Origin: Halomonas cerina
Lineage (GTDB): Bacteria; Pseudomonadota; Gammaproteobacteria; Pseudomonadales; Halomonadaceae
Assembly (NCBI RefSeq): GCF_014192215.1
Contig: NZ_JACHXP010000020.1
Span: 1 to 64,000 of the forward strand
Direction of reading: 5' to 3'
DNA length: 64,000 nucleotides
A program made the position numbers and the translations under genes. The first letter of the stretch is position 1; the number at the start of each line of letters is the position of its first letter. Positions 39,643 through 60,866 of this stretch are shown piece by piece. The notes beneath the pieces were generated by a model. It did not search any database. It was not told the DNA's origin and saw only the letters and a program-made list of their open reading frames with translations.

Positions 39643-41832
39643 TCAGCCGGCGGAGACCGGTTGGCCACCACCGCCATGGCGACCGCGCTGCATCATGAAC
39701 AGCACTGCCCCGATGGCAAGTCCCACGACATCGGTGTAGATGCCACCATAGATCATGCATAATGCCCCGACCAGCATCACCAGGCGCTGCCAGGCCTTCA
39801 CCGGCCCGAAGAACCAGGCCTGGACGGTAGCGGCCAGCAGCACGATGCCCAGGGTGGCGGTCACGCCCACCCTCAGGATCTGCATCCAGCTGCCCTCCAT
39901 CAGCATGGCCGGGCTGTAGAAGAACATGAAGGGCACGATGAAGGCGGCCAGACCGACCTTGAAGGAGGCCACCGACGTCCCCATGGCGTTGTCGCCGGAA
40001 ATGCCCGCCGCCGCATAGGAGGCCAGCGCCACCGGCGGGGTGATGGCCGAGACCACCGCGAAGTAGAACACGAAGAAGTGCGCCACCAGCGGCTGGATGC
40101 CGATCTCGATCAGGCCCGGGGCGACCACCGAGGCGGCCACCGCATAGGCGGCGGTGGTGGGCATGCCCATGCCCAGCAAGATCGAGATGCACATGGCGAA
40201 GAACAGCGCCAACAGCTGGCTGACACCGGCCAGACCGAGCAGCAGTGAGGAGAAGCGCGCGCCCACGCCGGTCATGGCGATGACGCCGACGATCAGGCCG
40301 GCACAGGCACACACGGCGATGATCTGGATCGCCATGGTGCCGGCCAGATGCAGCGCTCGCAGGATGGCGAGCAGACCCATCTTGTTGGGCGAGAACCAGC
40401 TCACCACGGCGGCCGAGGCGGTGGCCAGGGTGCCGGCGCGGATCACCGAGTAGCCCATGAACAGCGCGGCGATCAGGATGATGATCGGTGCGAACAGATA
40501 GACATGCTTGACCAGGCGGCGGAACTTGGGAATTTCCTCCTTGGGCATGCCGCGCATGCCCTTGCGGGCCGCCTCGAAGTCCACCATGCAGTAGACCGAC
40601 AGGAAGTAGAGGATGGCCGGGATCAGCGCCGCCACGGCGATCTCGGTATAGGGGATGCCGGTGACCTCGGCCATGATGAAGGCCCCCGCGCCCATGATCG
40701 GCGGCATGATCTGCCCGCCGGTGGAGGCGGCGGCCTCGATGGCCCCGGCGCTGCGGCCCGGGTAGCCCACTTTCTTCATCAGCGGGATGGTCAGCGAGCC
40801 GGTGGAGACCACGTTGCCGGCACTGGTGCCGTTGATCATGCCCATCAGCCCGGAGGCGAAGATCGCGACCTTGGCCGGGCCGCCTCGCGCGCGTCCGGCG
40901 GCGGCGAAGGCGAAGTTGATGAAGTACTCCCCTACCTTCGAAGCCTGCAGGAAGGCGGCGAAGATGATGAACAGAATGATGTAGGTGGATGATACCGCGG
41001 TGGTCGGACCCAGGATGCCGGTGTCGGTGTAGACCTGGCTGAAGAAGCGCCCCACCGAGAGGCCCGGGTAGCCGAGGAAGCCCGGCAGGTAAGGGCCGGC
41101 GAACACATAGGTCAGGAAGATCGCCGAAATGATCACCAGTGCCAGGCCGGCCACGCGACGGGTCAGCTCGAGGATCAGCAGCGAGCCGGCGATGCCCGCC
41201 CAGGTGAGGCCCACCGGGGCGAAGGAGGTGCCGGTGGAGGCACGCAGCGGGCTGTTGAATATCACCAGCAGGTAGCCTGCCACCGCGAGCGCGCAGACCA
41301 TCAGCACCAGGTCGGCCGGGTTGATCCGGTGGCGGGCCTCGCGCAGGCCCCAGGAGAGTACGATCGCCCCTGCGGTGGCAAGTATCAGTGGGTAGCCGAA
41401 GTGCCAGGTCTCCACCTCGGGGGCGATGCGCATCGCCCCCGCCTGCATCTCCTGATACATCATGACGGTGCGCACCAGGGCGTAGCCTGCCGGTACCAGC
41501 AGCACATAGCCGAGTGAGGTGAGCACGCGTCCGGCGGGGGCCCCCGGCTGATCGGCGAAGCGTGCCCCCGCATAGAAGCCGAAACCAAGGATCAGGGCAC
41601 CGGCGATGTGAATGATGCGGAACGACCAGGTCTCCATGGGGAACATGTTCAGGGTGACCAGGTGGAAGACGCAGTAGGCGATGGCCAGGCCGGCAAACAG
41701 TAACCATCGCCAGCCGCCATACAGGCGTCGATTCGATTCGACGACTTCGTCGTCGGCCCCGTCGGCAACGGACTCGGACGCCGCGGCGACGGGTTCCTCG
41801 TTGCCGGGGCGGTTCTCGGGTGTGTGATTCAT
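39643..41832 (-). CDS. TRAP transporter fused permease (TAXI type)
   Basis: A 729-residue permease joining the small and large TRAP membrane subunits: a hydrophilic N-terminus (1-45), about five helices, then the DctM-like part with repeated amphipathic hairpins. Marker stretches are GMINGTSAGNVVSTGSLTIPLMKKVGYP, AAASTGGQIMPPIMGAGAFIMAE, and later GMGMPTTAAYAVAASVVAPGLIE and TPPVALASYAAAGISG. TRAP systems use ion gradients and a periplasmic binding protein to import carboxylates. It follows the binding-protein gene by 110 bp on the same strand, almost certainly one operon. Confidence 0.95.
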   Translation of the reverse strand: MNHTPENRPGNEEPVAAASESVADGADDEVVESNRRLYGGWRWLLFAGLAIAYCVFHLVTLNMFPMETWSFRIIHIAGALILGFGFYAGARFADQPGAPAGRVLTSLGYVLLVPAGYALVRTVMMYQEMQAGAMRIAPEVETWHFGYPLILATAGAIVLSWGLREARHRINPADLVLMVCALAVAGYLLVIFNSPLRASTGTSFAPVGLTWAGIAGSLLILELTRRVAGLALVIISAIFLTYVFAGPYLPGFLGYPGLSVGRFFSQVYTDTGILGPTTAVSSTYIILFIIFAAFLQASKVGEYFINFAFAAAGRARGGPAKVAIFASGLMGMINGTSAGNVVSTGSLTIPLMKKVGYPGRSAGAIEAAASTGGQIMPPIMGAGAFIMAEVTGIPYTEIAVAALIPAILYFLSVYCMVDFEAARKGMRGMPKEEIPKFRRLVKHVYLFAPIIILIAALFMGYSVIRAGTLATASAAVVSWFSPNKMGLLAILRALHLAGTMAIQIIAVCACAGLIVGVIAMTGVGARFSSLLLGLAGVSQLLALFFAMCISILLGMGMPTTAAYAVAASVVAPGLIEIGIQPLVAHFFVFYFAVVSAITPPVALASYAAAGISGDNAMGTSVASFKVGLAAFIVPFMFFYSPAMLMEGSWMQILRVGVTATLGIVLLAATVQAWFFGPVKAWQRLVMLVGALCMIYGGIYTDVVGLAIGAVLFMMQRGRHGGGGQPVSAG

Positions 41833-41942
41833 GAGGGGAAACCCCTTGATGTGGGAACGGTGGGGAGCGGGTCACGCCCCGTGCCGAGGGCGACACGGAG
41901 CATGGGGTCAGGCGCTAGGCGGCCCGGCCTTTCGGACAAAAT

Positions 41943-42932
41943 CTAGTCGAGCTTGAGCTCGTCAGGGATTTCGTAGCCGTTCTCCTCGTACCAGCGCACG
42001 GCACCCGGGTGGAAGGGCAGTACGGTGTTGTACTTGATGTTTTCCGGGACCGTCGTCTCGGCGGAGCGGTGTACGTTACGCATCTTGTCGTTGTTTTCCA
42101 TGGTGACCTTGGTGACCTCGTAGACGAAGTCCTTCGGCAGGTCACAGCCGGCGATAGCGAAGTTCCACATGGAGACGGCGCGAGCATCCTCCTCGAGGGT
42201 CTGGTAGGTGCTGGCCGGGATCGAGAACGCGGAGACCGGGAACTCCTCTAACACCTTGGCCTGCTCCTCTTCGGTGAACTCGATGATGTTGACGTCGGTC
42301 TGCACCTCGAGTTGGCTGATGGCCGGGATCGGGATGCCGGCGGCGAAGGCGATGACGTCGATCAGGCCGTCCTGCAACTGGCCGCCGAGGTCGGACCAGC
42401 CACCATTGCGACGGTCGAACTCCACGCCCAGGGTCTCCAGGATGGCGGGAAAGTACGTATCGGAGGTGGAGGCCGCGGGGCCGAAACCGATGCTCGCGCC
42501 GTCGGGAATATCGGAGATCGACTCGATGCCGCTGTCGGCCAGGGCGGCGATGGAGAACGGTGTCTCGTACATCGGGAACAGCGCGCAGACGTTGTCCATT
42601 GCCACGCCCGGGGCCAGCGGGCTCTCGCCTTTCACGGCGTCGGCGGCCGGCCCCATGGTGGTCAGGCCGAAGGCCACATCGCCACCATGCACCAGGGCCA
42701 GGTTCTGGGTCGGGCCGCCGGTGACCTCGCCGCCACCGGAGATGCCCAACTCGTCGGCGATCAGGTTGGCCCAGCCGGAGCCATAGACATAGTAGGTGCC
42801 GCCCTGGCTGGCGGTGCCCACGGTGAAGCTCTCCGGCCAGTCGCTGCGGTCGGACTGGGCCGAGGCCGAGGCGGCCACCAGCAGGGAGCCGGCGAGAGTG
42901 CTGGCGAGCAGTTTGGTGGAAAGAAGACGCAT
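41943..42932 (-). CDS. TAXI-family TRAP solute-binding protein 1
   Basis: A 329-residue periplasmic binding protein. Signal peptide about 1-25 (MRLLSTKLLASTLAGSLLVAA, then ASAQ). The TAXI signature region is GTASQGGTYYVYGSGWANLIADELG; then TGGPTQNLALVHGGDVAFGLTTMGPAA, LFPMYETPFSIAALADSGIESISDI, and C-terminal LPFHPGAVRWYEENG. TAXI substrates include glutamate and other acids; not predictable here. GGAGAG upstream of the ATG. Expression is probably from the minus-strand sigma-54 promoter at 43076-43091. Its signal-peptide region is duplicated upstream of aceE. Confidence 0.95.
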   Translation of the reverse strand: MRLLSTKLLASTLAGSLLVAASASAQSDRSDWPESFTVGTASQGGTYYVYGSGWANLIADELGISGGGEVTGGPTQNLALVHGGDVAFGLTTMGPAADAVKGESPLAPGVAMDNVCALFPMYETPFSIAALADSGIESISDIPDGASIGFGPAASTSDTYFPAILETLGVEFDRRNGGWSDLGGQLQDGLIDVIAFAAGIPIPAISQLEVQTDVNIIEFTEEEQAKVLEEFPVSAFSIPASTYQTLEEDARAVSMWNFAIAGCDLPKDFVYEVTKVTMENNDKMRNVHRSAETTVPENIKYNTVLPFHPGAVRWYEENGYEIPDELKLD

Positions 42933-43075
42933 GATGTCTCTCCTGTTGCTGTTGTGCTCTTGTTAAATGCCCGGGCGGTCGTGCCCCGGGGCTGCATGCC
43001 GTCGTCCCCCAGTATGGTCACCGGTTGCGGGACCTGCCGTGATCCTGGCCGGGGTGGCATCAACGTCCATTATCC

Positions 43076-43091
43076 AGCAATGGTCATGCCC
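43076..43091 (-). promoter_or_regulatory. Sigma-54 promoter of the TAXI TRAP operon
   Basis: On the minus strand GGGCATGACCATTGCT: GG and GC are separated by exactly 10 bp and TTGCT matches the -12 element; only the first base departs from TGGCA. Predicted start about 43065, 130 nt before the binding-protein start codon. Confidence 0.7.
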
Positions 43092-43127
43092 ATTTATTGG
43101 AACATCTTGCATTTCATTCAGTTGCGA

Positions 43128-43159
43128 GATCATGCTTCGACCTTGGTCGAAGCATGATC
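43128..43159. repeat. 32-bp perfect inverted repeat with TCGACCTTGGTCGA core
   Basis: Arms GATCATGCTTCGACC and GGTCGAAGCATGATC (15 bp each) around TT. The core TCGACCTTGGTCGA (43137-43150) recurs with small changes upstream of aceE and lldE. Being between divergent genes, it is more likely a protein-binding site than a terminator. Confidence 0.75.
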
Positions 43160-43170
43160 GGCCGAGTGGG

Positions 43171-43219
43171 GCCGGGATCCCGCACGGAGCAGGTGTCGTG
43201 GTATGCGGATTTCCGCACA
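43171..43219. promoter_or_regulatory. DctD-type tandem boxes upstream of the TAXI operon
   Basis: Strong dyad TATGCGGATTTCCGCACA (43202-43219; exact arms TGCGGA/TCCGCA at 43204-43217). A weaker, half-matching copy GCCGGGATCCCGCAC (43171-43185) is centred 32.5 bp away. The form resembles, from memory, the upstream element of rhizobial DctD. The strong site is about 145 bp above the sigma-54 start, a usual enhancer distance. Confidence 0.6.
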
Positions 43220-43322
43220 GGTCCTCGCGCCAGGGGTGCCGTCAGGCGTCGGCGGCACTCGGCCAGATAGTCAGCTAGGTTTGTGGAAAGAAGTGATCCA
43301 CACCTCAATCGAGAGACATGCC

Positions 43323-44396
43323 ATGACTGACGAACGCGTTTTCTGCCTTCCCACCCTTGTCGCGGCCGGTGGCCTGCTGATCGGGGGGACCACGGCCATG
43401 GCCCAGGAACGTGCGGACTGGCCGGAGCGGATCAGGGTGGCTACTGCCTCCATCGGCGGCACCTACCATATCTACGGCCACGGCCTGTCCGCGCGCATCA
43501 CCGATGAGTTCGACATACTCGCCGATACGCGTACCACCGGCGGGCCCTACCACAACATGATCCTGGTCCACACGGGTGAAGCGGAGCTGGGCTTTGTCAC
43601 CCTGGGGCCGGCAAAGGAGCTTTGGGAGGGCGAGGCCGAGTTCGCCGATGGTGAGAAGATGCGCAACGTGCGTGCCCTCTTTCCCATGTACCGAACCCCC
43701 TTCCACATAGTCACCCAGGCCGATTCAGGCATCGAAAGCATCGATGACCTCAGTGGGGCCCGTGTCGGGGTGGGACCCATGGGCGGCACCTGCGCCACCT
43801 ATTGGGAGCGGTTCTTCGATGAACTGGGGGTTGAGGATGTCCGCCTGCAGTATGCCGGCGCCAGCCTGTCGGCGGATTACATGCTCGGCGGCCTCAGCGA
43901 TGCCTTCGCCTTCTGTGCCGGCCTGCCTATCCAGGCCTTCGAGCATGTGGAGAGTCGCCAGGCGGTACGGATGTTCGGCCTGACCGAGGAGCAGCAGGCG
44001 ACCCTGGTGGACGCCTTTCCGGTGACTCCCTACGAGATCCCTGCCGACACCTATGCGTCGATGGATGCCCCCCAGGCCTCGGTGGCCTTCTGGAATTTCG
44101 CCATCGGCCACAAGGATCTCGATGAGGGTTTCGTCCATGAACTCATGGCACTGGTGCTCGAGGACAACGACGCCATGCAGGAGATCCACCCCGCAGCGGC
44201 CGAGACCCGGCCGGAGCACATGGAGAAGAACAATGTGATCTGGTTCCATCCCGGCGCGGTGCGCTATTACCGGGAGCAGGGGCTCGAGGTGTCCGAGGCG
44301 ATGATGCCGCCCGAGATGCGCCAGCAGGGAGAAGAAGAGGAGGCCGAAATGGAAGGCGAAACGGGGGGCCGGGCCGAGGAGAGCGCCGAGCAATAA
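43323..44396 (+). CDS. TAXI-family TRAP solute-binding protein 2
   Basis: A 357-residue homologue of binding protein 1 encoded divergently. Signal peptide about 1-27 (LPTLVAAGGLLIGGTTAMAQ). The TAXI core is ATASIGGTYHIYGHGLSARITDEF, TGGPYHNMILVHTGEAELGFVTLGPA, LFPMYRTPFHIVTQADSGIES, and C-terminal WFHPGAVRYYREQG. It ends in an acidic tail (about 325-357, mostly Glu) absent from protein 1. No permease lies beside it, so it may share the fused permease of protein 1. The start at 43323 is chosen by the signal peptide; the ribosome site (GAGAGA) is weak. Confidence 0.9.
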   Translation: MTDERVFCLPTLVAAGGLLIGGTTAMAQERADWPERIRVATASIGGTYHIYGHGLSARITDEFDILADTRTTGGPYHNMILVHTGEAELGFVTLGPAKELWEGEAEFADGEKMRNVRALFPMYRTPFHIVTQADSGIESIDDLSGARVGVGPMGGTCATYWERFFDELGVEDVRLQYAGASLSADYMLGGLSDAFAFCAGLPIQAFEHVESRQAVRMFGLTEEQQATLVDAFPVTPYEIPADTYASMDAPQASVAFWNFAIGHKDLDEGFVHELMALVLEDNDAMQEIHPAAAETRPEHMEKNNVIWFHPGAVRYYREQGLEVSEAMMPPEMRQQGEEEEAEMEGETGGRAEESAEQ

Positions 44397-44669
44397 TAGC
44401 CCCGGCAGCCTTTTACGAAGCCAGTAGGATGCCCATGTCGCTCGATAGCTGCCAGGGAATCCTGCTTCCCGATGGCGGGCCGGATGACGACGAGTGGGAG
44501 GCGTGCCAGATGGCACACAACCGTGTACCTGGCCATTCGATGATGACAGGCGTCTGCCCGCCAGGTCGTCAGTGGGGCAACCGGGCGGCGCCGCGTCGTA
44601 CCGGGCAAGAGCCTGTCACGGCACCACCCACCACCGGGGGATCAGAACTGCAGCCCGATGATAGTCACC

Positions 44670-46775
44670 TTATCGCTTCTTCTGTGGCGGCAGATCGGTG
44701 CACACGCCTTCGAACAGTTCGGCGGCCATCCCCACCGATTCGCCCAGGGTCGGATGCGGGTGGATGGTCTTGCCGATGTCGACCGGGTCGCAGCCCATCT
44801 CGACGGCCAGACACAGCTCGCTGATCAGATCCCCCGCCTGGGTGCCGACGATCGCCCCACCGATGATGCGGTGGGTGTCTTCGTCGAACAGCAACTTGGT
44901 GAAACCTTCGTCACGCCCGTTGGCGATCGCCCGTCCGCTGGCCGCCCAGGGAAAAATCGCCTTGCCGTACTTGATGCCTTCGGCCTTGCATTCGGTCTCG
45001 GTCTTGCCGGCCCAGGCGACTTCCGGGTCGGTGTAGGCCACCGAGGGGATCTGTCGGGCATCGAAGAAGCTCTTGTGTCCGGCCGCGGCCTCGGCGGCGA
45101 CATGCGCCTCGTGCACCGCCTTGTGGGCCAGCATCGGCTGGCCGATGATGTCGCCGATGGCGAAGATGTGCCCGACGTTGGTGCGCAACTGCTTGTCAAC
45201 ATTGATGAAGCCGCGCTCGTCGACCGCCACGCCGGCGTTTTTTGCACCGATCTTGTTGCCGTTAGGGCTGCGCCCGACCGATTGCAGGACCATGTCGTAC
45301 AGCTGTGGCTCGGCGGGGGCGTTGTCGCCCTCGAAGCTGACCTTGAGGCCGCTCTTTTGGGCTTTCACGGCGGTGGTCCGGGTCTTGAGCATCACCTTGT
45401 CGAAGCGTGGCGTGTTGACTTTTTCCCAGACCTTGACCAGATCGCGGTCGGCGCCGGTCATCAGCCCGTCGAGCATCTCGACCACGTCGATGCGGGTGCC
45501 CAGGGAAGAATAGACCGTGGCCATCTCCAGGCCGATGATGCCACCACCGATGACCAGCATGCGCTTCGGGATGGAGGTCAGTTCCAACGCGCCGGTGGAG
45601 TCGACCACCCGGGGGTCGTCGGGAATGAAGGGCAGTTTCACCGACTGCGAACCAGCGGCGATGATGCACTTGTCGAACTTTACCACTTGCTTGTCGCCGG
45701 TCTGCTCCTGGCCGTCGCCGGTCGTCAGGGCCACTTCCAAGTGATGCGGGTCGAGGAAGGTCCCGACCCCGCGCACGACCTGGACCTTGCGTGCCCTGGC
45801 CATGCCGGCCAGACCCCCGGTGAGCTGGCCGACGACCTTTTCCTTCCAACCGCGCAGTTTGTCGAGATCGATTTTCGGCTTGCCGAAGGCGATGCCGTGA
45901 TCGGCCATGGCATTGGCCGCGTCGGTGACCGCCGCGACATGCAGCAGCGCCTTGGAGGGGATGCAGCCGACGTTTAGGCACACCCCGCCGAGGCTGGCAT
46001 AGCGCTCCACCAGCACGGTCTTCATCCCCAGATCGGCGGCCCGGAAGGCGGCCGAGTAGCCGCCCGGGCCGGCGCCGAGCACCAGCATCTCGCACTCGAT
46101 ATCGGCCCCGCCGGTATGGGTGGCCGCTTGTGGGGCGGGCGCGGCGGCTGCCTTCTCTCCCGTTCCCTGCGCGACAGAGGGTTGGGAGGCAGAGCCTTTC
46201 CCTTCCGCTTCCAGCATCAGGATTGCCGTGCCTTCCGAGACCGTGTCGCCGACTGACACCAGCACCTCGCTGACCTTGCCGGCCTTGGGCGCGGGCACGT
46301 CCATCGAGGCCTTGTCGGACTCCAGGGTGATCAGTGGGTCCTCGGCACGGATCGTGTCGCCTGCGCGTACCAGCACTTCGATGATCGGAACATCACCGAA
46401 ATCGCCGATGTCCGGCACCCGAACCTCTTCCAGGCTGCCGCCGCCATAACCACCGCCGGCATCGCCGGGCGCTGCGGAGCCAACCCCTTTTTCATGGACC
46501 GCTGGATGCGGGTCGTGGTCCGCCACCCGGGACCCGGTCTCGGCCGGTTCCAGCATCAGAATGGTCGAGCCTTCGGAGACCTTGTCCCCCTCCTTGACCT
46601 TGAGTTCTCCAACCGTGCCCGACTGCGGGGACGGCACGTCCATGGAGGCCTTGTCGGTCTCCAGGGTGATCAGCGGCGTCTCGATGTCGATCGCATCGCC
46701 CGGCTTGACCAGCACCTCGATGACCTCGACGTCCTTGAAGTCACCGATGTCGGGCACCTTGATTTCGATTGCCAT
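44670..46775 (-). CDS. lpd: Dihydrolipoyl dehydrogenase (E3) with two N-terminal lipoyl domains
   Basis: A 701-residue E3 of pyruvate dehydrogenase. Two lipoyl domains come first: Lys42 in ETDKASMDVP and Lys155 in ESDKASMDVP, joined by a flexible Gly/His-rich linker; a second Ala/Pro linker leads to the flavoprotein. FAD site GAGPGG (about 234), redox disulfide GGVCLNVGCIPSK (Cys266/Cys271), NAD motif GGGIIGLEMATVYSSLG, and catalytic His in HPHPTLGE. Ordinary E3 proteins (about 475 residues) have no lipoyl domain; some beta- and gammaproteobacterial PDH E3s have one. It starts 14 bp after aceF and is the last gene of the cluster. Confidence 0.95.
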   Translation of the reverse strand: MAIEIKVPDIGDFKDVEVIEVLVKPGDAIDIETPLITLETDKASMDVPSPQSGTVGELKVKEGDKVSEGSTILMLEPAETGSRVADHDPHPAVHEKGVGSAAPGDAGGGYGGGSLEEVRVPDIGDFGDVPIIEVLVRAGDTIRAEDPLITLESDKASMDVPAPKAGKVSEVLVSVGDTVSEGTAILMLEAEGKGSASQPSVAQGTGEKAAAAPAPQAATHTGGADIECEMLVLGAGPGGYSAAFRAADLGMKTVLVERYASLGGVCLNVGCIPSKALLHVAAVTDAANAMADHGIAFGKPKIDLDKLRGWKEKVVGQLTGGLAGMARARKVQVVRGVGTFLDPHHLEVALTTGDGQEQTGDKQVVKFDKCIIAAGSQSVKLPFIPDDPRVVDSTGALELTSIPKRMLVIGGGIIGLEMATVYSSLGTRIDVVEMLDGLMTGADRDLVKVWEKVNTPRFDKVMLKTRTTAVKAQKSGLKVSFEGDNAPAEPQLYDMVLQSVGRSPNGNKIGAKNAGVAVDERGFINVDKQLRTNVGHIFAIGDIIGQPMLAHKAVHEAHVAAEAAAGHKSFFDARQIPSVAYTDPEVAWAGKTETECKAEGIKYGKAIFPWAASGRAIANGRDEGFTKLLFDEDTHRIIGGAIVGTQAGDLISELCLAVEMGCDPVDIGKTIHPHPTLGESVGMAAELFEGVCTDLPPQKKR

Positions 46776-46789
46776 GGTGTCGTTTCCCC

Positions 46790-48340
46790 TTACATGATGA
46801 TGCGCCGCATATCGGCGAGCAGGCTGGCGAAATGGACGTTGAAACGGGCCGCGGCGGCGCCGTCGATCACCCGGTGGTCCCAGGACAACGACAGGGGCAG
46901 CATGAACCGCCAGTCCGACTGCTTGCCGTCCGGCGAGACCTGCTTCCAATAGGAGCGGCATACGCCCATGATGGCCACCTCGGGGGCATTGATGATGGGC
47001 GTGAAATAGTGCCCGCCGATCCCGCCCAGCGAGGAGATGGTGAAGCAGCCGCCCTGCATCTGATCGGGCTTGAGCTTGCCGTCGCGGGCCAGCTTGGCCA
47101 GCGCCCCCATTTCCTGGGCGATCTCGGCCACGCTCTTCTGATCCGCATCGCGGATCACCGGCACCACCAGACCCTGGGGCGTGTCGGCGGCGAAACCGAT
47201 ATGGTAGTACTGCTTGAATATCAGATTGTCGCCGTCCAGTGAGGCATTGAACTCGGGGAACTTTTTCAAGGACGCGACCGCAGCCTTGATCATGAACGCC
47301 AGCATGCTGACCTTGATGCCCGCCTTCTCGTTGTCCTTGTTGAACTGCACGCGGAAGGCTTCCAGGTCGGTGATGTCGGCCTCGTCGTGGTTGGTGACGT
47401 GGGGAATCCTCACCCAGTTGCGATGCAGATTGGCACCGGAGATCTTCTTGATGCGTGATAGCGGCTGGGTTTCCACCGGACCGAACTTGCTGAAATCGAC
47501 CTTGGGCCAGGGCAGTAGATCCATGCCCTCCCCGGCAGCCGGAGCACCGGCCGGGGCCGCCGCCGGGGCGCCGCCCTTGGCGAAGTTCTGAATGTCCTCC
47601 TGGGTGACTCGGCCCTTGAGGCCGGTCGGCGGCACGCGGGTCAGATCCACCTCCAGTTCGCGGGCCAGGCGGCGAGCCGAGGGGCTGGCGTGAACCCGGC
47701 TGAAATCCGCAATCTGGCCGGTCGAAGGTGCGCTGGAGGGGGCAGTCGCCGGTTGCGGTGGCTTCTCTGCTTCGTCGGCGGGTGGCGCGCTCTTTTCTTC
47801 CGCTCCTGCCTCGCTCTCCAGCAGCAGTATCGGGCTGCCTTCGGATACCGTGTCACCGACCTTGACCTTGACCTCCTTGACGGTGCCGGCCTGGGGCGCG
47901 GGCACGTCCATGGAGGCCTTGTCGGACTCCACGGTGATCAGCGGGTCCTCGGGCTGGACGCTGTCGCCGGCCTGGACATGGATCTCGATGATCGGCACAT
48001 CGCTGAAGTCGCCGATGTCGGGGACCTTGATCTCCTCCACCCCGCCGCCGGACGGTGCCGATGCCTTCTCTCCCTCGGCGGGGGAGGGTGAGCCACCCTC
48101 ACCCTCCGACTCCAGCATCACAATCGTCGAACCCTCGGAGACCGTGTCACCGACCTTGACCTTGACCTCCTTGACGGTGCCGGCCTGGGGCGCGGGCACG
48201 TCCATGGAGGCCTTGTCGGACTCCACGGTGATCAGCGGGTCCTCGACCTGGACGCTGTCACCGGCCTGGACATGGATCTCGATGATCGGCACATCGGTGA
48301 AGTCGCCGATGTCCGGTACCTTGATTTCTTGGATGGCCAC
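46790..48340 (-). CDS. aceF: Dihydrolipoyllysine acetyltransferase (E2) of pyruvate dehydrogenase
   Basis: A 516-residue E2. Two lipoyl domains with lipoylation Lys43 and Lys141 (both VESDKASMDVP), separated by 98 residues; then a peripheral subunit-binding domain (VHASPSARRLARELEVDLTRVPPTGLKGRVTQEDI, about 218-255) and the catalytic core ending in LSLSWDHRVIDGAAAARFNVHF with the active His and Asp. It transfers acetyl groups from E1 to CoA. The two lipoyl coding segments share 105 identical bases in a row. Starts 17 bp after aceE. Upstream GGAG on the minus strand gives the ribosome site. Confidence 0.96.
   Translation of the reverse strand: MAIQEIKVPDIGDFTDVPIIEIHVQAGDSVQVEDPLITVESDKASMDVPAPQAGTVKEVKVKVGDTVSEGSTIVMLESEGEGGSPSPAEGEKASAPSGGGVEEIKVPDIGDFSDVPIIEIHVQAGDSVQPEDPLITVESDKASMDVPAPQAGTVKEVKVKVGDTVSEGSPILLLESEAGAEEKSAPPADEAEKPPQPATAPSSAPSTGQIADFSRVHASPSARRLARELEVDLTRVPPTGLKGRVTQEDIQNFAKGGAPAAAPAGAPAAGEGMDLLPWPKVDFSKFGPVETQPLSRIKKISGANLHRNWVRIPHVTNHDEADITDLEAFRVQFNKDNEKAGIKVSMLAFMIKAAVASLKKFPEFNASLDGDNLIFKQYYHIGFAADTPQGLVVPVIRDADQKSVAEIAQEMGALAKLARDGKLKPDQMQGGCFTISSLGGIGGHYFTPIINAPEVAIMGVCRSYWKQVSPDGKQSDWRFMLPLSLSWDHRVIDGAAAARFNVHFASLLADMRRIIM
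47847..47951. repeat. 105-bp exact direct repeat, copy in second lipoyl domain
   Basis: Identical over 105 bases to 48141-48245, offset 294 bp (98 codons, in frame). It encodes part of the second lipoyl domain of AceF. Confidence 0.9.
48141..48245. repeat. 105-bp exact direct repeat, copy in first lipoyl domain
   Basis: Identical to 47847-47951. Identity at third codon positions points to recent gene conversion or duplication rather than protein-level selection alone. Confidence 0.9.
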
Positions 48341-48357
48341 TGTTGTTCTCCTCCGGC

Positions 48358-51021
<2,664 letters not shown>

Positions 51022-51057
51022 GGATCGTCTCCCTTGGTTGGGTCGGCATTGTTTTCG

Positions 51058-51213
51058 TTATCGATCGGTCCGTGCCTCGACCACGGCGAAGGCGCTCATG
51101 TTGGCGATACCTCGTGCGGCGACCGTGTGGTTGAGCTCATGTACCGGCTTGGCGGCCCCCTGCAGGGAGCCGGCCAGGGTGCTGGCGAGCAACTTGGGAG
51201 AAAGAAGACGCAT
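51058..51213 (-). pseudogene. Truncated TAXI binding-protein start, fused to unrelated sequence
   Basis: A 51-codon frame opening MRLLSPKLLASTLAGSL, identical to residues 1-17 of TAXI binding protein 1 except Pro for Thr. DNA homology covers about 51162-51239 against 42881-42958. After residue 17 it runs into QGAAKPVHELNHTVAARG and further residues unlike the binding protein, to a TAA at 51058. The good ribosome site of the parent is lost. I read it as a remnant signal-peptide segment left by a rearrangement that placed aceE behind this promoter; translation as a leader peptide is possible. Confidence 0.65.
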
Positions 51214-51404
51214 GGTGTGACTCCATTGCTGTTGTCGTTGGTGATGTTCTCGACGGACATGAAAGGCCGTGAGCCTGCTGCATCAGTCTGGCAGCTATGT
51301 CGCGACTAGCCGCCATCGAGTGGATGCGACTTTCAACGAACACTAGAGCAATGGGGGGAGGGGAGAAATTCTTTCTCTTTCATCAAGTGGATAGCAGTTG
51401 TGTG

Positions 51405-51420
51405 CTCGACCTTGATCGAG
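51405..51420. promoter_or_regulatory. TCGACCTTGATCGA palindrome upstream of aceE
   Basis: CTCGACCTTGATCGAG, matching the core of the 43128-43159 repeat in 13 of 14 bases, 67 bp from the DctD-type dyad exactly as in the TAXI region. Confidence 0.6.
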
Positions 51421-51439
51421 ATGCGTGGCGCGGGGATGT

Positions 51440-51490
51440 TCCGGATTCTCGCACCCTGCTGCCAGGCAGCTGTGCGGAAGTCCGCACAGC
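51440..51490. promoter_or_regulatory. DctD-type tandem boxes upstream of aceE
   Basis: Strong dyad CTGTGCGGAAGTCCGCACAG within an exact 10-bp-arm inverted repeat (51469-51490), and a weaker TCCGGATTCTCGCAC (51440-51454) centred 32.5 bp away. The strong dyad is a fuller match to the DctD form than the TAXI one. Confidence 0.6.
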
Positions 51491-51562
51491 AAGCCTGGCG
51501 GTGTTGGGTCAGACAGCACGTTGCCGGCGTCGCTGGTCGGGCGGAGAGGGTGTGGCGAGGTC

Positions 51563-51808
51563 TCAGTGGCCCTTGGGGTCGAGGATCTTCACGGTCTGAA
51601 GGTCGGAGGCCTGTTGCTCCTCGTGTTCCCGGTTGACCCGGGTCTCGAGCTCCGGCAGGACCTCGTCTTCGATGGGCAGTTGCTCGAAGAAGTCGCAGCT
51701 GACGCACTCGCGGTAGCGGATGCCGTTCTGTTCCCAGGCGCGGATGCGATCCATCTCGGCGCAGCGGGGACAAACGACACCGGCGATAAAGCGTTTCTGG
51801 ACGGCCAT
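51563..51808 (-). CDS. yheV: YheV-family zinc-ribbon protein
   Basis: An 81-residue protein. Two Cys pairs, VCPRC and CVSC (about residues 13-16 and 36-39), form a predicted zinc ribbon (RFIAGVVCPRCAEMDRIRAWEQNGIRYRECVSCDFFE). The remaining acidic C-terminal half is probably flexible. This matches YheV/DUF2387, a gammaproteobacterial family of unknown function. It starts 51 bp after prlC on the same strand and may be co-transcribed. Confidence 0.85.
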   Translation of the reverse strand: MAVQKRFIAGVVCPRCAEMDRIRAWEQNGIRYRECVSCDFFEQLPIEDEVLPELETRVNREHEEQQASDLQTVKILDPKGH

Positions 51809-51859
51809 GGGGACTCCTGAAAGGGGGCCGCCGGGGGATCCCGGCGGCGTGACGTTTGG

Positions 51860-53908
51860 TCAGGCGGCACGAATGCCGCTGTGGCGAAGCAGCGGCTCGA
51901 CGCTGGGCTCGCGGCCACGGAAGGCGCGGAACAGTTCGGCGGCGTCGCGGGAGCCGCCGCGCTCGAGGATCTCGGTGCGAAAGCGCCGCCCGGTCTCGGG
52001 GTCGAAGATACCCGCTTCCTCGAAGGCGCTCCAGGCGTCGGCGGAGAGCACCTCGGCCCACTTGTAACTGTAGTAACCCGCCGCATAGCCACCGGCGAAG
52101 ATGTGGCCAAAGCCGTTCTGGAAGCGGTTGAAGTTGGCTCGCGGCACCACTGAGATGGCGTCGCGCACTTCGTCGAGCAGCGCCTGGATCTGGGCCGCCG
52201 TAGGCGCGGCGAGTTCCTGGTGCAGGCGGAAGTCGAACAGCGAGAACTCCAGCTGGCGCACCATGCCCATGGCCGACTGGAAGTTCTTGGCCGCCTGCAG
52301 CTTCTCGAACAGGGTGTCGGGCAGCGGCTCGCCGGTCTCCACGTGGCTGGCGATCAGGTCCAGGCCCTCGCGCTCCCAGCAGAAGTTCTCCATGAACTGG
52401 CTGGGTAACTCCACCGCGTCCCAGGCCACGCCATTGATGCCGGAGATATCGGCGACGGTCTGGCGGGTCAGCATGTGGTGCAGGCCGTGGCCGAACTCGT
52501 GGAAGAGGGTGGTGACCTCGTCGTGGGTCAGCAGCGCCGGCGTATCTCCCACCGGGCGGGTGAAGTTGCAGGTCAGGTAGGCCACCGGTAGCTGCAGGGT
52601 ATCGCCGTCCCGGCGGCGCACCCGGCACTCGTCCATCCAAGCACCGCCGCGCTTGCCCTCTCGGGCATAGAGATCGAGATAGAAGCCGGCGATCGGCGCG
52701 TCGTCCTCCATGATGCGGAAGTAGCGCACGTCGGAATGGTAGCGCGGCGCCTCCCGGTCCTCCTCGAAGCGGACCCCGTAGAGCCGCTCGACCACCTGGA
52801 ACAGGCCGTCCACCACCCGGGGAGCCGGGAAGTAGGGGCGCAGCTGCTCCTCGGAGATGGCGTAGCGGGCCTCGCGCAGCTTCTCGCTGGCGTAGCCCAC
52901 GTCCCAGGGGGCCAGCGCGTCCATGCCCAGGGTGTCGCGGGCGAAGGTCGCCAGCTCGGCGTACTCCTCTCGGGCCTGGGGTATGGCGCGTGCCGCCAGA
53001 TCCTCGAGGAAGGTGATCACCTGCTCGGGGGAGTCGGCCATCTTGGTGGCCAGCGAATAGTCGGCGTAGGTGGTAAAGCCCAGCAGCTCGGCGAGCTCTC
53101 GACGTAGGGCGAGAATCTCCTCCATGAGCGGGGCGTTGTCGAACTGCCCGGCCCGGGGACTCTGGTCGGAGGCGCGGGTGACGAAGGCGGTGTAGACCTC
53201 TTCGCGCAGCGCGCGATCGTCGGCGTAGGTCATCACCGGGAAGAAGCTGGGGAAGTCCAGGGTGATGCGATAGCCCTCCTGCCCCTTGGCCTCGGCGTTG
53301 GCTGCCAGTGTCGCCAGGGCGCTGTCGGGCAGGCCGCCGAGCCGGCGGGTATCGGGCAGATCCCGGTACCAGGCCTGGGTGGCATCCAGCAGCTGGTTGG
53401 AGAAGGTGTTGGCGAGTTCGGAGAGGCGCGACTGAATCTCGCCGTAGCGGCGTTTCTGCGCCGGGGGCAGGTCGACGCCGGCCAGGCGGAAATCACGCAG
53501 GGCGTTGTCCACGGTGCGCCGCTGGCCCTCGTCGAGCTCGACCCAGGCGGGGCCGTCCTTCAATGCCTGCCAGGCCTGGAACAGCCCCTCATGCTGACCC
53601 AGCCAGGTGCTGTAGTCGGAGAGCTTGCCCAGGCAGGCCTGGTAGGCCTCGCGCAGTTCGGGGCTGTTCATGGTGCCGTTGAGGTGCGAGACCGGCGACC
53701 AGGTCCGCGAGAGGCGGTCATTGAGCGCCTCCAGCGGGGCCGCCAGGCTCTCCCAGGTGGGCGCCTGCTCAGCAGCCTGCGCGACGAGCCGTTCGATGGC
53801 GGTGCGGTTCTCTTCCAGCAGTTCCTCGATGGCCGGCACCACGTGTTCGGCGCGGATCTCGGCGAAAGGGGGCAGCTCATGGGGTTCGAGCAACGGGTTG
53901 CGGGACAT
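51860..53908 (-). CDS. prlC: Oligopeptidase A
   Basis: A 682-residue M3-family metallopeptidase degrading short peptides, including cleaved signal peptides, in the cytoplasm. The zinc motif HEFGHGLHH (about 470) with the downstream Glu in DAVELPSQFMENFCWE is present, as are N-terminal LLEPHELPPFAEIRAEHVVPAIEELL and GGYAAGYYSYKWAEVLSADAWSAFEE. Length matches E. coli PrlC (680). The ATG at 53908 follows GAGG; a GTG two codons upstream overlaps that site. Divergent from the NSS transporter gene. Confidence 0.96.
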   Translation of the reverse strand: MSRNPLLEPHELPPFAEIRAEHVVPAIEELLEENRTAIERLVAQAAEQAPTWESLAAPLEALNDRLSRTWSPVSHLNGTMNSPELREAYQACLGKLSDYSTWLGQHEGLFQAWQALKDGPAWVELDEGQRRTVDNALRDFRLAGVDLPPAQKRRYGEIQSRLSELANTFSNQLLDATQAWYRDLPDTRRLGGLPDSALATLAANAEAKGQEGYRITLDFPSFFPVMTYADDRALREEVYTAFVTRASDQSPRAGQFDNAPLMEEILALRRELAELLGFTTYADYSLATKMADSPEQVITFLEDLAARAIPQAREEYAELATFARDTLGMDALAPWDVGYASEKLREARYAISEEQLRPYFPAPRVVDGLFQVVERLYGVRFEEDREAPRYHSDVRYFRIMEDDAPIAGFYLDLYAREGKRGGAWMDECRVRRRDGDTLQLPVAYLTCNFTRPVGDTPALLTHDEVTTLFHEFGHGLHHMLTRQTVADISGINGVAWDAVELPSQFMENFCWEREGLDLIASHVETGEPLPDTLFEKLQAAKNFQSAMGMVRQLEFSLFDFRLHQELAAPTAAQIQALLDEVRDAISVVPRANFNRFQNGFGHIFAGGYAAGYYSYKWAEVLSADAWSAFEEAGIFDPETGRRFRTEILERGGSRDAAELFRAFRGREPSVEPLLRHSGIRAA

Positions 53909-54012
53909 GCGCACCTCGGATCCGATGATAGTCAGGAAGGTTAGATGCGGGCGGCCGCGGCAGGTTTCAATGTGCTAGGCTTGCGGCCCCTTGCAAGCCA
54001 AGCCGGAGTGGC

Positions 54013-55356: not shown

Positions 55357-55372
55357 TGACTGGAGGTACACG

Positions 55373-55924
55373 ATGAGCGAGACGATGGCCATTCGATCCT
55401 GGAAGGGCACGACCCCGCAGCTGGGCGAGCGGGTCTATCTCGACCCGGCCGGCCTGGTACTGGGCGATGTGGTGCTGGGCGACGACTGCTCGGTGTGGCC
55501 CATGGCGGTGATTCGCGGGGATATGCACCGCATCCGTATCGGCGCGCGGGTCAGCATCCAGGACGGCAGCGTGCTGCACATCACTCACGCCAGCGACTTC
55601 AATCCTGACGGCTTCCCGCTGACCATCGGTGACGACGTCACCATCGGCCACCGGGTAATCCTGCATGGTTGCACCCTGGGCAACCGGGTCCTGGTGGGCA
55701 TGGGGGCCATTGTCATGGACGGTGCGGTAGTCGAGGACGAGGTGATCATCGCCGCCGGCGCCGTGGTCACCCCGGGCAAGCGACTGGCGGGCGGCCATGT
55801 CTATGCCGGCAACCCGGCCAAGGTGTTGCGACCGATCAAGGAATCGGAGCGGGCCTTCTTCCCCTATACCGCCGGTAACTACGTCAAACTGAAGGACCAG
55901 TACCTGGCGGCCCAGGCCGGCTGA
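55373..55924 (+). CDS. Gamma-carbonic anhydrase family protein
   Basis: A 183-residue left-handed beta-helix hexapeptide-repeat protein (VVLGDDCSVWPMAVIRGDMHRIRIGARVSIQDG). The zinc-ligand histidines are present: HITHAS and TIGHRVILHGC. Similar to E. coli YrdA/CaiE-type proteins; actual carbonic anhydrase activity varies within the family. ATG at 55373 with GGAGG upstream, in the operon with the NSS transporter. Confidence 0.92.
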   Translation: MSETMAIRSWKGTTPQLGERVYLDPAGLVLGDVVLGDDCSVWPMAVIRGDMHRIRIGARVSIQDGSVLHITHASDFNPDGFPLTIGDDVTIGHRVILHGCTLGNRVLVGMGAIVMDGAVVEDEVIIAAGAVVTPGKRLAGGHVYAGNPAKVLRPIKESERAFFPYTAGNYVKLKDQYLAAQAG

Positions 55925-56017
55925 AACACTGTCGCCGTTTGGCAACTGATTGTTTTATCTCGCCATGTTGCGCATAATCTGGATTTGTATCCAGTGTTAT
56001 TGTCGAGTGTGTCACGC

Positions 56018-56664: not shown

Positions 56665-56689
<25 letters not shown>
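56018..56689 (+). CDS. YdjM-type inner-membrane metal-dependent hydrolase-like protein
   Basis: A 223-residue membrane protein starting MAGFRTHLSFAVGGGALLAV, with five hydrophobic segments. Conserved His/Asp residues lie in RTHLSF, GGILPDIDSDHSRAV, SVHRGIWHSLLA and IHLLLDELYSVD, the pattern of the YdjM/DUF457 family (LexA-regulated membrane protein in E. coli), thought to be a metal hydrolase. The start at 56018 is preferred over one 33 bp upstream because it gives the family N-terminus. Its last 25 bp overlap the convergent dctD gene. Confidence 0.82.
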
Positions 56690-58039
<1,350 letters not shown>

Positions 58040-58047
<8 letters not shown>

Positions 58048-59959
58048 GGGCGTGTGGCTCCTCGGTGTGCGCCTGGCCGGCCGCCTCGGGACCGAAGTCG
58101 CGGGGCAGGGTGATGGTGAAGGTGGCGCCCCCACCCGGAACGTTGGCGGCCTCGAGTCGCCCACCCAGATCATCGATGATGCGGGCCGAGATCGACAGCC
58201 CCAGCCCCAGGCCGCTGCCCGTGGACTTGGTGGTGAAGAAGGGCTCGAATAGCCTGGGAAGGTCCGCCTCGGCGATACCCGGGCCGTTGTCGATCACCGC
58301 GATGCGTACTCGCTTGCCTTCAGGGACGATGGTCAGGGTCAGCCGGGGCTCGGTCGTCTCGGCCATGGCCTGCAGGGCATTGCCGATCAGGTTGACCAGG
58401 ACCTGCTCGAGACGCACCGGTTCGGCGCGTACCCAGACCGCCTCGTCGGGCCAGTGCCGTTCGACGCTGACTACCCCTTCATTCAACCGAGCCTGAAACA
58501 GGCGCAGGGCGTAGTCGAAGCAGGAAGCCACCGAGACCGGGGTGAGCGTATCACCGCTCTTGCGTGAGAACTGGCGCAGCTGGGCGCTGATCTGGGCCAT
58601 CCGCTCGGTGAGCTCGACGATCTGGCCGAGGTTGGCATCGGCGACCTCGGTTCGGCTTCTGGACAGGAAGGTGCGCGCGTTCTCGGCATAGGCACGGATC
58701 GCCGCCAGCGGCTGATTGAACTCATGATTGATGCCGGCGGCGAGCTGGCCAAGCACGGCGAGCTTGGCGGCCTGGATCAGCTCGTCGCGGGTCTGGCGCA
58801 GCCGTTCCTCGGCCCGACGGCGCTCCTCGATCTCGGCGGAGAGGCGCTGGTTGGTCGCCACCAGGTCCCGGGTCCGCCGTTCCACGTTGCGTTCGAGCTC
58901 GTCCCGGGCCCGGGCCAGGGTCTCCCGCTCCCGCGCGGCGAAGCGCTCGCGCTCCCGGCGCAGTCGCCAGCGCTGCCAACCGACGCCACCGCCCAGCGCC
59001 ACCAGCCCGTACAGGCCGCCGGCCAGCAGCGCCGACAGCCACTGGGTCCGGACCACCGGGTCCAGCGACTTGAGAATGTGCATCTCCCAGCCAAGGGTGG
59101 GCATGGGGCGCGACAGGTTCAGGAAGTGGCCGTCGGCCAGGGGGCCGTGACTGAAGCGAACCAGCCGGCTGCGCGCTCCGAGAGTCTCCAGTTCCTGGAG
59201 ACCGGAGGAGGGCAGTGACTCATCGGCATAGCGCCGTGTGGCCAGCAGGTCCTCGCGCTCTTCCGGCGCGAGCGCGTTTAGGGCACTCAGGCGCAGGGCC
59301 GGATGGCTGGCCATGAAGATGATGTCGTCGGGCCCGATGACCAGCAGTTCGGCCTCCTGTTCGGCCCAACTCGCCTCCACGGCATCGAGCAGCACCTTCA
59401 CCACTATCACGCCATCGGGTGTTGCGTCCGGAGCGGTCTCGTCCAGCCAGACCGGTGCCGAGAAGTAGTAGCCGCGCTCCTGGGACTGGGTGCCCAGGCC
59501 GTAGAAGCGTCCCTGGCGACCGGCGATGGCCTCACGGTAGTAGCTGCGGAAGTGGTAGCTCTGGCCGATGAAGGTATCGGGCCGGTGCCAGTTGCTGGCC
59601 GCCAGGGTTTCGGCCTGGCGGTCGAGCAGATAGATGTCCGAGACGTCGGCGGTGGCCCGGAAGCGGTCGAGCAGGCGATTCAGCGGCATGGCGTCTTGCT
59701 GCTCGGGGGCGGCCAGGAAACGCTTGACCATCTCCCGTGAGGCGAGTAGCTGAGGCAGGTATTCGTGGCGCGACAGATGGCCATTCAGGCCGGCCGCAGA
59801 AAGGCGCAGCTCGTTCTCGGCGTCCCGCTGAAGGGTCTGCAGGGCCTGGTCGCGGGTTACTTGGGCGGTCTGCCACATGCACAGGGTGAGTCCCAGCGGC
59901 AGCAGCACCCACAGCAGGCGGCGCAGGATGCGATGGCGGTGTACGGCGCGAGTCGCCAT
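58040..59959 (-). CDS. dctB: DctB-type sensor histidine kinase
   Basis: A 639-residue membrane kinase. One helix at about 11-30, a large periplasmic sensor (about 31-300; double-Cache/PAS-like, with RFRATADVSDIYLLDRQAETLAASNW and SYHFRSYYREAIAGRQGRFYGLGTQSQERGYYFSAPV), a second helix at about 308-328, a coiled-coil linker, then H-box AGINHEFNQPLAAIRAYAENA and HATPase motifs NLIGNALQAM, DNGPGIAEADL and GSGLGLGLSI. In DctB the sensor binds succinate, malate or fumarate; lactate or another acid is possible. It begins 3 bp after the lldR stop. Confidence 0.9.
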
Positions 59960-60770: not shown

Positions 60771-60799
60771 ATGATATCTCATTCAATTGGTATTACCAA
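60771..60799 (-). promoter_or_regulatory. lldR promoter
   Basis: Minus strand TTGGTA (60794-60799), 17-bp spacer, TATCAT (60771-60776). The -35 lies inside operator O1, predicting autorepression. Confidence 0.65.
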
Positions 60800-60800
60800 T
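60786..60800. promoter_or_regulatory. LldR/PdhR-type operator O1
   Basis: ATTGGTATTACCAAT, an exact ATTGGT-N3-ACCAAT dyad over the lldR -35. Confidence 0.8.
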
Positions 60801-60866
60801 AGTCTGAAGGAGCGCGGCAGAGACGGGTCTCTTGTGGTCGCCGGCAATAGGCATGACATGATCCTG

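What the first reader, a model, noticed from the sequence alone, without database searches (positions are those of the whole stretch)
43171..51490. Identical enhancer architecture upstream of the TAXI transporter and of pyruvate dehydrogenase
Both regions contain a strong TGCGGA-N2-TCCGCA dyad (43204-43217; 51469-51490), a weak copy centred 32.5 bp to its left, and a TCGACCTTGRTCGA palindrome centred 67 bp to its left. The spacings are the same to the half base. The dyads look like DctD binding sites as I remember them. This suggests one activator, probably the DctD encoded at 56665-58047, controls uptake of an acid and its entry into acetyl-CoA.
Basis: partly seen in the sequence, partly recalled or inferred. 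Interest (0 to 1): 0.75.

Follow-up and report, generated by a model that had tools for sequence, protein, structure and literature searches.

The report
TAXI transporter enhancer captured by pyruvate dehydrogenase
Two control regions in this Halomonas-type genome look alike because both descend from the switch of one nutrient-uptake gene; one still looks whole in front of that gene, while the other, in front of a spare pyruvate dehydrogenase, has kept its enhancer but lost the promoter that the enhancer needs.

Summary
The dyad TGCGGA-N2-TCCGCA occurs exactly twice in the 4.17-Mb genome, with a palindrome 67.0 bp away at both places. It matches the printed Rhizobium DctD site at 17 of 18 (TAXI) and 16 of 18 (PDH) positions.

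In the genus, 82 of 88 promoters of this TAXI gene carry a dyad plus a sigma54 box 124-127 nt downstream (126, 12 helical turns, in 62); Markov control 1 of 3520. DctD lies near TAXI in 75 of 81 genomes.

The PDH copy is not an independent PDH enhancer. It is a native TAXI promoter into which a cassette with an accessory PDH recombined, leaving a 51-codon scar: TAXI signal-peptide start joined to a malic-enzyme tail. In 8 of 19 other genomes such a promoter precedes the accessory malic enzyme-PDH operon. Here malic enzyme is lost from the locus and the -24 GG is CC, so DctD-sigma54 control of this PDH is probably lost.

DctD at TAXI: well supported. Co-control of PDH: likely in relatives, unlikely here. 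No binding or expression data.

The parts
43202..43219 (-). UAS1 of TAXI1: strong DctD-type dyad TGTGCGGAAATCCGCATA
   Evidence: 17 of 18 identical to the R. meliloti DctD site quoted in PMC11077940
43172..43184 (-). UAS2 of TAXI1: weaker copy, centre 32.5 bp from UAS1
   Evidence: sequence; conserved GTGCGg..t.CCgg block in 62 anchored promoters
43136..43151 (.). palindrome TTCGACCTTGGTCGAA, 67 bp from UAS1, regulator unknown
43106..43129 (-). conserved block, IHF-like (name by recall)
   Evidence: AAc....TGA block in the anchored profile
43076..43091 (-). sigma54 -24/-12 box GGGCATGACCATTGCT of TAXI1, 126 nt from dyad start
41943..42932 (-). TAXI1 solute-binding protein
   Evidence: TIGR02122, 185.2 bits, cutoff 84.35
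39643..41832 (-). fused TRAP permease
   Evidence: TIGR02123, 625.9 bits, cutoff 320.65
43323..44396 (+). TAXI2, a second TAXI solute-binding protein, divergent
   Evidence: TIGR02122; adjacent to lpd also in G074 and G027
51471..51488 (-). PDH-side UAS1 TGTGCGGACTTCCGCACA, DctD-type dyad, perfect but for the two central bases
51441..51453 (-). PDH-side UAS2, weak copy
   Evidence: 11.6 bits, equal to the family minimum
51405..51420 (.). PDH-side palindrome, degenerate
51347..51362 (-). sigma54 box remnant CCCTCCCCCCATTGCT: -12 kept, -24 GG replaced by CC, 2 bp closer to UAS1
   Evidence: -9.6 bits; family 8.1 to 25.1; 95% point of background -2.4
51058..51213 (-). 51-codon scar ORF: TAXI1 start fused to malic-enzyme C-terminus; junction at CCTGC(A/T)GG near 51159-51166
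48358..51021 (-). accessory aceE
   Evidence: TIGR00759, 1432.5 bits; 94-98% matches (first 300 residues) in 19 of the 89 other genus genomes, housekeeping copy 60% identical
46790..48340 (-). aceF
   Evidence: ORF; colinear with aceE and lpd in sister cassettes
44670..46778 (-). lpd with lipoyl domains (start chosen by eye at MAIEIKV)
   Evidence: ORF; colinear in sister cassettes
51860..53914 (-). M3 peptidase, native left neighbour of the TAXI1 promoter in relatives
   Evidence: Pfam PF01432, 517.4 bits; synteny
56665..58047 (-). DctD response regulator
   Evidence: receiver matches DctD structures 1qkk and 1l5y; full-length orthologue in 81 of 90 genus genomes
58040..59959 (-). DctB sensor kinase
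   Evidence: periplasmic part matches DctB structures 3e4o and 2zbb, and 3by9, listed as 'Sensor protein'

Best explanation
Both regions descend from one kind of promoter, that of the TAXI1 transporter: tandem DctD sites, a palindrome for an unidentified regulator, an IHF-like block and a sigma54 box about 12 helical turns from the strong site. At TAXI1 (43076-43219) it is whole and is most likely switched on by phospho-DctD from the neighbouring dctBD. The PDH-side copy (51347-51488) is the native TAXI1 promoter of this locus. A cassette of accessory PDH genes, TAXI2 and a second promoter-TAXI1-TRAP unit recombined into the native TAXI1 gene near codon 17, at a short CCTGCNGG match with the malic-enzyme gene. 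That left a TAXI/malic-enzyme scar ORF before aceE and nothing else of malic enzyme at this locus. In sister genomes such promoters are intact and probably give DctD control of malic enzyme-PDH (malate to pyruvate to acetyl-CoA). Here the -24 GG is gone, so the enhancer has no recognisable promoter to act on. Shown: sequences, synteny, spacings, scar, loss of -24. Inferred: DctD binding, sigma54 dependence, substrate, order of events.
For: Exact dyad twice in the genome. UAS + sigma54 at 124-127 in 82 of 88 TAXI1 promoters, Markov control 1 of 3520. Dyad matches the printed DctD site. DctD and TAXI1 on one contig, within 14 kb, in 75 of 81 genomes with full-length DctD (G027 by its C33 copy). 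In two other genera dctD lies directly upstream of the UAS-TAXI1 unit (L268, L270). Scar junction: 5' part aligns to the TAXI1 start, 3' part at 139 of 146 positions to the G074 maeB end. Window 44650-51166 is 92% identical to the G074 cassette, the native flank 51737-59851 83%. The G052 native locus aligns to both sides of the insertion, overlapping at the TAXI1 start. PDH-side promoter is closest to G052's TAXI1 promoter (0.72) and only 0.54 to the window's own TAXI1 promoter, which is closest to G074's second one (0.86). Sigma54 score at PDH -9.6. A sigma54 factor gene is present.
Against: No binding or expression data. Across the genus the bare 14-base dyad is not much commoner than its reversed control (45 versus 34 of 90 genomes); only its place and spacing carry the weight. 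G034 has DctD but no UAS at TAXI1, and G055 has the UAS but no DctD found (87% complete, 400 contigs). The DctD-absent genomes G038, G068 and G080 have nearly the same promoter, so they may be one event. The cassette's history is mosaic: within TAXI1 (about 42970-42130) the window is no closer to G074 (0.81-0.94) than to G052, G053 or G018, whereas from 42010 to 41290 G074 is clearly closest; the order of events is not resolved. A non-canonical sigma54 box or another promoter at PDH cannot be excluded; the sigma70 scan found none, but such a scan is weak in G+C-rich DNA. PDH-side UAS1 is nearly perfect, which could mean that it is still selected.
Confidence: 0.8

Rival explanations
1. The PDH-side enhancer still works: DctD bound at 51471-51488 activates aceE through a divergent sigma54 box, so uptake and acetyl-CoA entry are co-controlled in this organism.
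For: UAS1 26.2 bits, inside the family range; UAS2, palindrome and IHF-like block above the 99.9% background point at the expected place. Eight of 19 sister operons have the architecture with a sigma54 box.
Against: Best sigma54 score at PDH is -9.6, below all 62 family members and below the 95% point of background; -24 GG is CC.
Confidence: 0.12
2. Another enhancer-binding protein of the DctD group (AauR- or MifR-like) binds the dyad, not this DctD.
For: The genome encodes many regulators of this type (18 scored matches among 50 candidates); the sensor's ligand was not tested.
Against: The AauR motif is TTCGG-N4-CCGAA (PMC7386598, passages), unlike this dyad; the dyad matches the R. meliloti DctD site; synteny and co-occurrence with this dctD.
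Confidence: 0.08
3. The two regions are a recent tandem copy of one promoter within this genome.
For: Same architecture, same TAXI1 start codons.
Against: The two regions are only 54% identical, and each is closer to TAXI1 promoters of other species (0.72 and 0.86).
Confidence: 0.05
4. The PdhR/LldR-like GntR regulator (59963-60736) controls PDH and TAXI through the TCGACC palindrome.
For: A third palindrome lies at 60867-60880 between gntR and the lut genes.
Against: The same intergenic region has two matches to the PdhR/LldR operator as I recall it (AATTGGTNNNACCAATT, 60785-60801 and 60951-60967), and there is no other match with up to 3 mismatches in the window, so none at PDH or TAXI1.
Confidence: 0.05

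Closest known systems
DctD/sigma54-activated dctA promoter of Rhizobium (tandem upstream activation sites; PMC11077940, passages)
   Same: 18-bp dyad TGTGCGgaaatCCGCACA, two sites; sigma54 promoter and dctB-dctD pair (partly recalled)
   Different: Here the target is a TAXI-TRAP transporter, with a nearly fixed 126-nt spacing and an added palindrome; in relatives also a malic enzyme-PDH operon
AauR motif upstream of hrpRS in Pseudomonas syringae (PMC7386598, passages)
   Same: A transporter-type enhancer site found in front of an unrelated operon, possibly by recombination
   Different: Different motif and target; here the recombination scar is visible and the captured promoter is broken in this genome
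C4-dicarboxylate to acetyl-CoA route by malic enzyme plus PDH in rhizobia (recalled; PMC4960864 seen as a search listing)
   Same: Same enzymes joined downstream of dicarboxylate uptake
   Different: In the Halomonas relatives the enzymes form one operon, in 8 of 19 behind an uptake-type promoter; my searches found no report of this
Vibrio cholerae glutamate-specific TAXI-TRAP (PMC11574862, search listing; TAXI chains such as 8s4j match)
   Same: TAXI solute-binding protein family
   Different: Substrate of the window's TAXI1 not tested

Membership tests
DctD-activated sigma54 promoter (TAXI1 side) | dyad matching the DctD site TGTGCGgaaatCCGCACA | tested here: met
   17 of 18 identical
DctD-activated sigma54 promoter (TAXI1 side) | second, weaker site nearby | tested here: met
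   43172-43184, 22.2 bits
DctD-activated sigma54 promoter (TAXI1 side) | -24/-12 box with GG-N10-GC | tested here: met
   43091-43076, 10 of 12 consensus positions
DctD-activated sigma54 promoter (TAXI1 side) | DctD binds and activates | not testable with these tools
   needs footprint and expression data
DctD-activated sigma54 promoter (PDH side) | dyad matching the DctD site | tested here: met
   16 of 18 identical
DctD-activated sigma54 promoter (PDH side) | -24/-12 box with GG-N10-GC | tested here: not met
   CC at -24, -9.6 bits
DctBD two-component system | sensor periplasmic domain like DctB | tested here: met
   3e4o E 1.8e-25, 3by9 E 3.3e-32
DctBD two-component system | receiver like DctD plus sigma54-activator domain | tested here: met
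   1qkk E 1.7e-42; sigma54-activator domains match; no NCBIfam model shown reached its cutoff
DctBD two-component system | responds to C4-dicarboxylates | not testable with these tools
   no ligand assay
TAXI-type TRAP transporter | TAXI solute-binding protein plus fused permease | tested here: met
   TIGR02122 and TIGR02123 above cutoff
homodimeric pyruvate dehydrogenase E1 | AceE equivalog above cutoff | tested here: met
   TIGR00759 1432.5 bits, cutoff 859.9

The most novel reading that the evidence does not exclude
In Halomonas and its relatives the DctBD-sigma54 switch has spread from dicarboxylate uptake to the whole route malate - pyruvate - acetyl-CoA. A mobile, probably foreign-born malic enzyme-PDH operon has more than once landed behind a TAXI1 enhancer, and this genome holds a decaying case. 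A second, unidentified regulator reads a palindrome kept in fixed helical phase between enhancer and promoter.
Probability: 0.5. Interest if true: 0.6.

Novelty: new variant of a known kind. Interest (0 to 1): 0.5.

Why it matters
It gives a readable natural series of enhancer capture: ancestral-type promoter-transporter (G052), promoter-transporter-malic enzyme-PDH (G074), promoter on malic enzyme with the transporter gone or reduced to a remnant (G027, G006, G036), and a scarred copy with its promoter box lost (the window). It predicts DctD targets beyond transport that can be tested by deletion, and a strict enhancer-promoter phase (126 nt) that can be tested by spacing changes in a reporter. 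It also warns that two matching enhancers in one genome can reflect shared descent, not present-day co-regulation.

Tried and rejected
Chance: rejected. Recent duplication inside this genome: rejected. PdhR/LldR operator at PDH: none found; around the housekeeping aceE only one 2-mismatch match, fewer than chance, and no UAS upstream of it. Palindrome as a site of a known regulator: the CRP/FNR-like geometry (TTCGA-N6-TCGAA) is my recall only. Of 9 non-TAXI palindrome loci looked at by ORF list, 6 got a Pfam or NCBIfam check of one or more ORFs (L005; L102, L110, L111, L113, L118): in L110 the palindrome lies 11 bp from the start of an AraC-family regulator gene, in L111 it lies inside an ORF with a cyclic-nucleotide-binding domain, and in L102 and L118 about 175 bp upstream of an NAD-type glutamate dehydrogenase gene. 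No candidate recurs enough to name the regulator. Sigma70 promoter and terminator near PDH: none found. My first sigma54 scan had an indexing error and printed nothing; it was replaced. NCBIfam puts DctD nearest NtrC and AtoC, below every cutoff shown, so the DctD name rests on structure matches, motif and synteny. Literature: searches listed no paper that I could see reporting DctD control of PDH or of a TAXI transporter in Halomonas; I read passages of only three papers, and the library lacks most subscription papers.

Rows dropped before counts: the survey covers 88 promoters from 87 of 90 genomes; G033, G088 and G072 had no TAXI1 orthologue; G058's hit is a 51% paralogue that was kept and lacks the architecture. 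The profiles use the 62 promoters with offset 126. One search was given 34 loci (5 own, 29 relatives) because could return at most 30. The random control (150 pieces) drew on L079, which carries a real copy; its maximum, 33.7, equals that copy's score, so I take it to be that copy. In one search G074 was scored upstream of TAXI1a, not of maeB. Fisher's p is not corrected for relatedness.
Full report
WHAT IS THERE. The two dyads are at 43204-43217 and 51473-51486. Searching the whole 4.17-Mb genome for TGCGGA-N2-TCCGCA finds these two places only, with 0 for the reversed control. The palindromes are centred 67.0 bp away in both and the weak copies 32.5 bp away (read). In both cases the genes lie to the left on the minus strand: TAXI1 starts at 42932, aceE at 51021. 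The 18-base minus-strand forms are TGTGCGGAAATCCGCATA (TAXI1) and TGTGCGGACTTCCGCACA (PDH). The DctD site of Rhizobium meliloti is given as TGTGCGgaaatCCGCACA in PMC11077940 (passages read); that is 17 of 18 and 16 of 18 identical.

A COMPLETE PROMOTER AT TAXI1. On the minus strand a sigma54 -24/-12 box, GGGCATGACCATTGCT, starts at 43091, exactly 126 nt from the start of the dyad. In the genus 45 of 90 genomes have the exact 14-base dyad, against 34 of 90 with the reversed control, so the bare dyad says little there. Of 29 relative loci read, 20 have the TAXI1 gene beside the dyad and 9 do not. I then took the TAXI1 upstream region from 87 of 90 genomes (88 regions; loci). A dyad with at most 4 mismatches of 16, followed by a sigma54 box at 124-127 nt, is present in 82 of 88; the offset is 126 in 62, 127 in 10, 125 in 9 and 124 in 1; a first-order Markov control gave 1 of 3520. 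126 bp is 12 turns at 10.5 bp per turn. The anchored profile of 62 promoters shows five conserved blocks: UAS1, UAS2, palindrome, an IHF-like AAc....TGA block and the sigma54 box. The genome has a sigma54 factor gene.

WHY DCTD. dctB and dctD (56665-59959) lie in the same block; their sensor and receiver parts match DctB and DctD structures. A full-length DctD orthologue (at least 81% identical) is in 81 of 90 genus genomes; G084 has it in two pieces. In 75 of the 81 it is on the same contig as TAXI1, within 14 kb; in the other 6 (G013, G061, G062, G069, G070, G082) the contigs differ (G027 by its C33 copy). Of 87 genomes with a TAXI hit, the architecture is present before the best hit in 80 of 82 with DctD (exceptions G034 and G036; G036 has it before its second TAXI gene, offset 126) and in 1 of 5 without (G055, an incomplete genome). 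Fisher p for 80/82 versus 1/5 is 3.3e-5, uncorrected for relatedness. In G038, G068 and G080, which have TAXI1 but no DctD, the dyad and the sigma54 box are gone, palindrome-like half-sites remain only in a wider inverted repeat, and an FNR-like TTGATTCAAATCAA (motif recalled) stands in the promoter. Across 293 genomes of the order, the exact 18-base dyad occurs in 6: the window's, 4 of other genera of the family, and G192. In all 4 of the other genera it precedes TAXI1 with a sigma54 box at 126 or 127 nt, and in 2 of them dctD is the next gene upstream. The 3-kb G192 locus shows none of these genes.

WHY THE PDH REGION LOOKS THE SAME. Between UAS and aceE there is a 51-codon ORF, 51058-51213 minus. 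Its start matches the TAXI1 start and signal peptide and its end matches the C-terminus of an NADP-type malic enzyme (malic-enzyme model PRK12861 at 1069.9 bits, under its cutoff of 1178). The switch lies at CCTGC(A/T)GG. Three comparisons explain it. (a) G052 has the simple native locus: it aligns to window 39685-42955 and to 51151-58633, with overlap at the TAXI1 start, so the material between is an insertion into TAXI1. (b) G074 has dctB-dctD-...-M3 peptidase-UAS-TAXI1a-maeB-aceE-aceF-lpd-TAXI2-UAS-TAXI1b-TRAP; the window matches this cassette at 91-92% but the native flank at 83%. (c) The PDH-side promoter is closest to G052's TAXI1 promoter (0.72), the window's TAXI1 promoter to G074's second (0.86), and the two are 0.54 to each other. 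So the architectures are alike by descent, but the two copies have different recent histories. The picture is not fully clean: inside TAXI1 the window is no closer to G074 than to G052, G053 or G018, while from 42010 to 41290 G074 is clearly closest, and metF beyond the cassette also matches G074 at 91%. The region is a mosaic and the order of events is open.

THE PDH SIDE HAS LOST ITS PROMOTER BOX. Scored with profiles from 62 relatives, the PDH side keeps UAS1 (26.2 bits; family 18.1-34.3), UAS2 (11.6, the family minimum), palindrome (14.9; family 10.0-28.2) and IHF-like block (12.0; family 3.4-26.9), all at the expected place. Its best sigma54 score is -9.6 (family 8.1-25.1; 95% of background below -2.4): the -24 GG is CC and the -12 is 2 bp too close. 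No sigma70-like promoter was found there either.

THE PDH IS AN ACCESSORY, MOVING OPERON. The window's AceE is 60% identical (first 300 residues) to the housekeeping AceE on contig C8; matches at 94-98% occur in 20 of 90 genus genomes including its own. Among the 80 best of 190 matches in named genomes, the nearest after the Halomonas and Billgrantia records are mostly Thiothrix and Competibacteraceae at 68-71%, which suggests transfer. In 17 of the 19 other genomes malic enzyme lies directly before aceE; in G041 malic enzyme is reduced to its first codons, and in G078 the operon follows lutABC. Of these 19 operons 8 have the UAS/sigma54 architecture upstream: 4 strong (G074, via TAXI1a; G027; G036; G006; sums 58-75) and 4 diverged (G071, G001, G024, G020; 34-43). 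Eleven have none (-14 or lower; 95% point of 150 random pieces -14.4). In G036 a shrunken TAXI1 remnant lies between promoter and maeB. The window genome keeps accessory malic-enzyme pieces at the ends of contigs C17, C42 and C46; the two upstream regions seen by eye (C42, C46) show no UAS.

VERDICT. DctD-sigma54 control of TAXI1 is well supported by sequence. Control of PDH by the same switch is likely in several relatives but probably lost here. None of this has been tested by experiment.

Noticed in passing
43136-43151, 60867-60880; G000:C25:20617-20630 (L005): Palindrome TTCGAC-N4-GTCGAA sits 66-68 bp from the dyad in the DctD-type TAXI1 promoters; a looser form also lies between gntR and the lut genes and on contig C25. 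Its regulator is unknown.
   Followed up: partly
L102 and L118 (G019, G054): The palindrome with the same centre as at TAXI1 lies about 175 bp upstream of an NAD-type glutamate dehydrogenase gene (Pfam GDH domains), a hint at the second regulator's other targets.
   Followed up: partly
L110 (G038): A palindrome copy lies 11 bp upstream of an AraC-family regulator gene.
   Followed up: partly
60785-60801 and 60951-60967: Two AATTGGTNNNACCAATT operators (PdhR/LldR type as I recall it) lie between the GntR gene and the lut genes, probably an autoregulated lactate operon.
   Followed up: partly
L074 (G078): The accessory PDH operon lies directly behind lutABC, so it seems to be placed behind different pyruvate-producing routes.
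   Followed up: partly
L133, L138, L139 (G038, G068, G080): Genomes without DctD have a different TAXI1 promoter: FNR-like TTGATTCAAATCAA and a long TTCGACC...GGTCGAA inverted repeat.
   Followed up: partly
L132 (G034): Has DctD and TAXI1 but no UAS or sigma54 box at TAXI1: an exception to the association.
   Followed up: no
L265, L266, L267 (G000 contigs C17, C42, C46): Pieces of accessory malic enzyme at contig ends, as if two or more copies broke the assembly; no DctD-type enhancer seen upstream of the two 5' ends.
   Followed up: partly
43323-44396: TAXI2 is divergent from TAXI1 and shares its intergenic region; on its strand the scan gave only a weak sigma54-like match (7 of 12, at 43169).
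   Followed up: no
G084:C1:542239-543617: DctD matches in two overlapping pieces there and the TAXI1 match is short (residues 3-297), as if the pair is decaying together.
   Followed up: no
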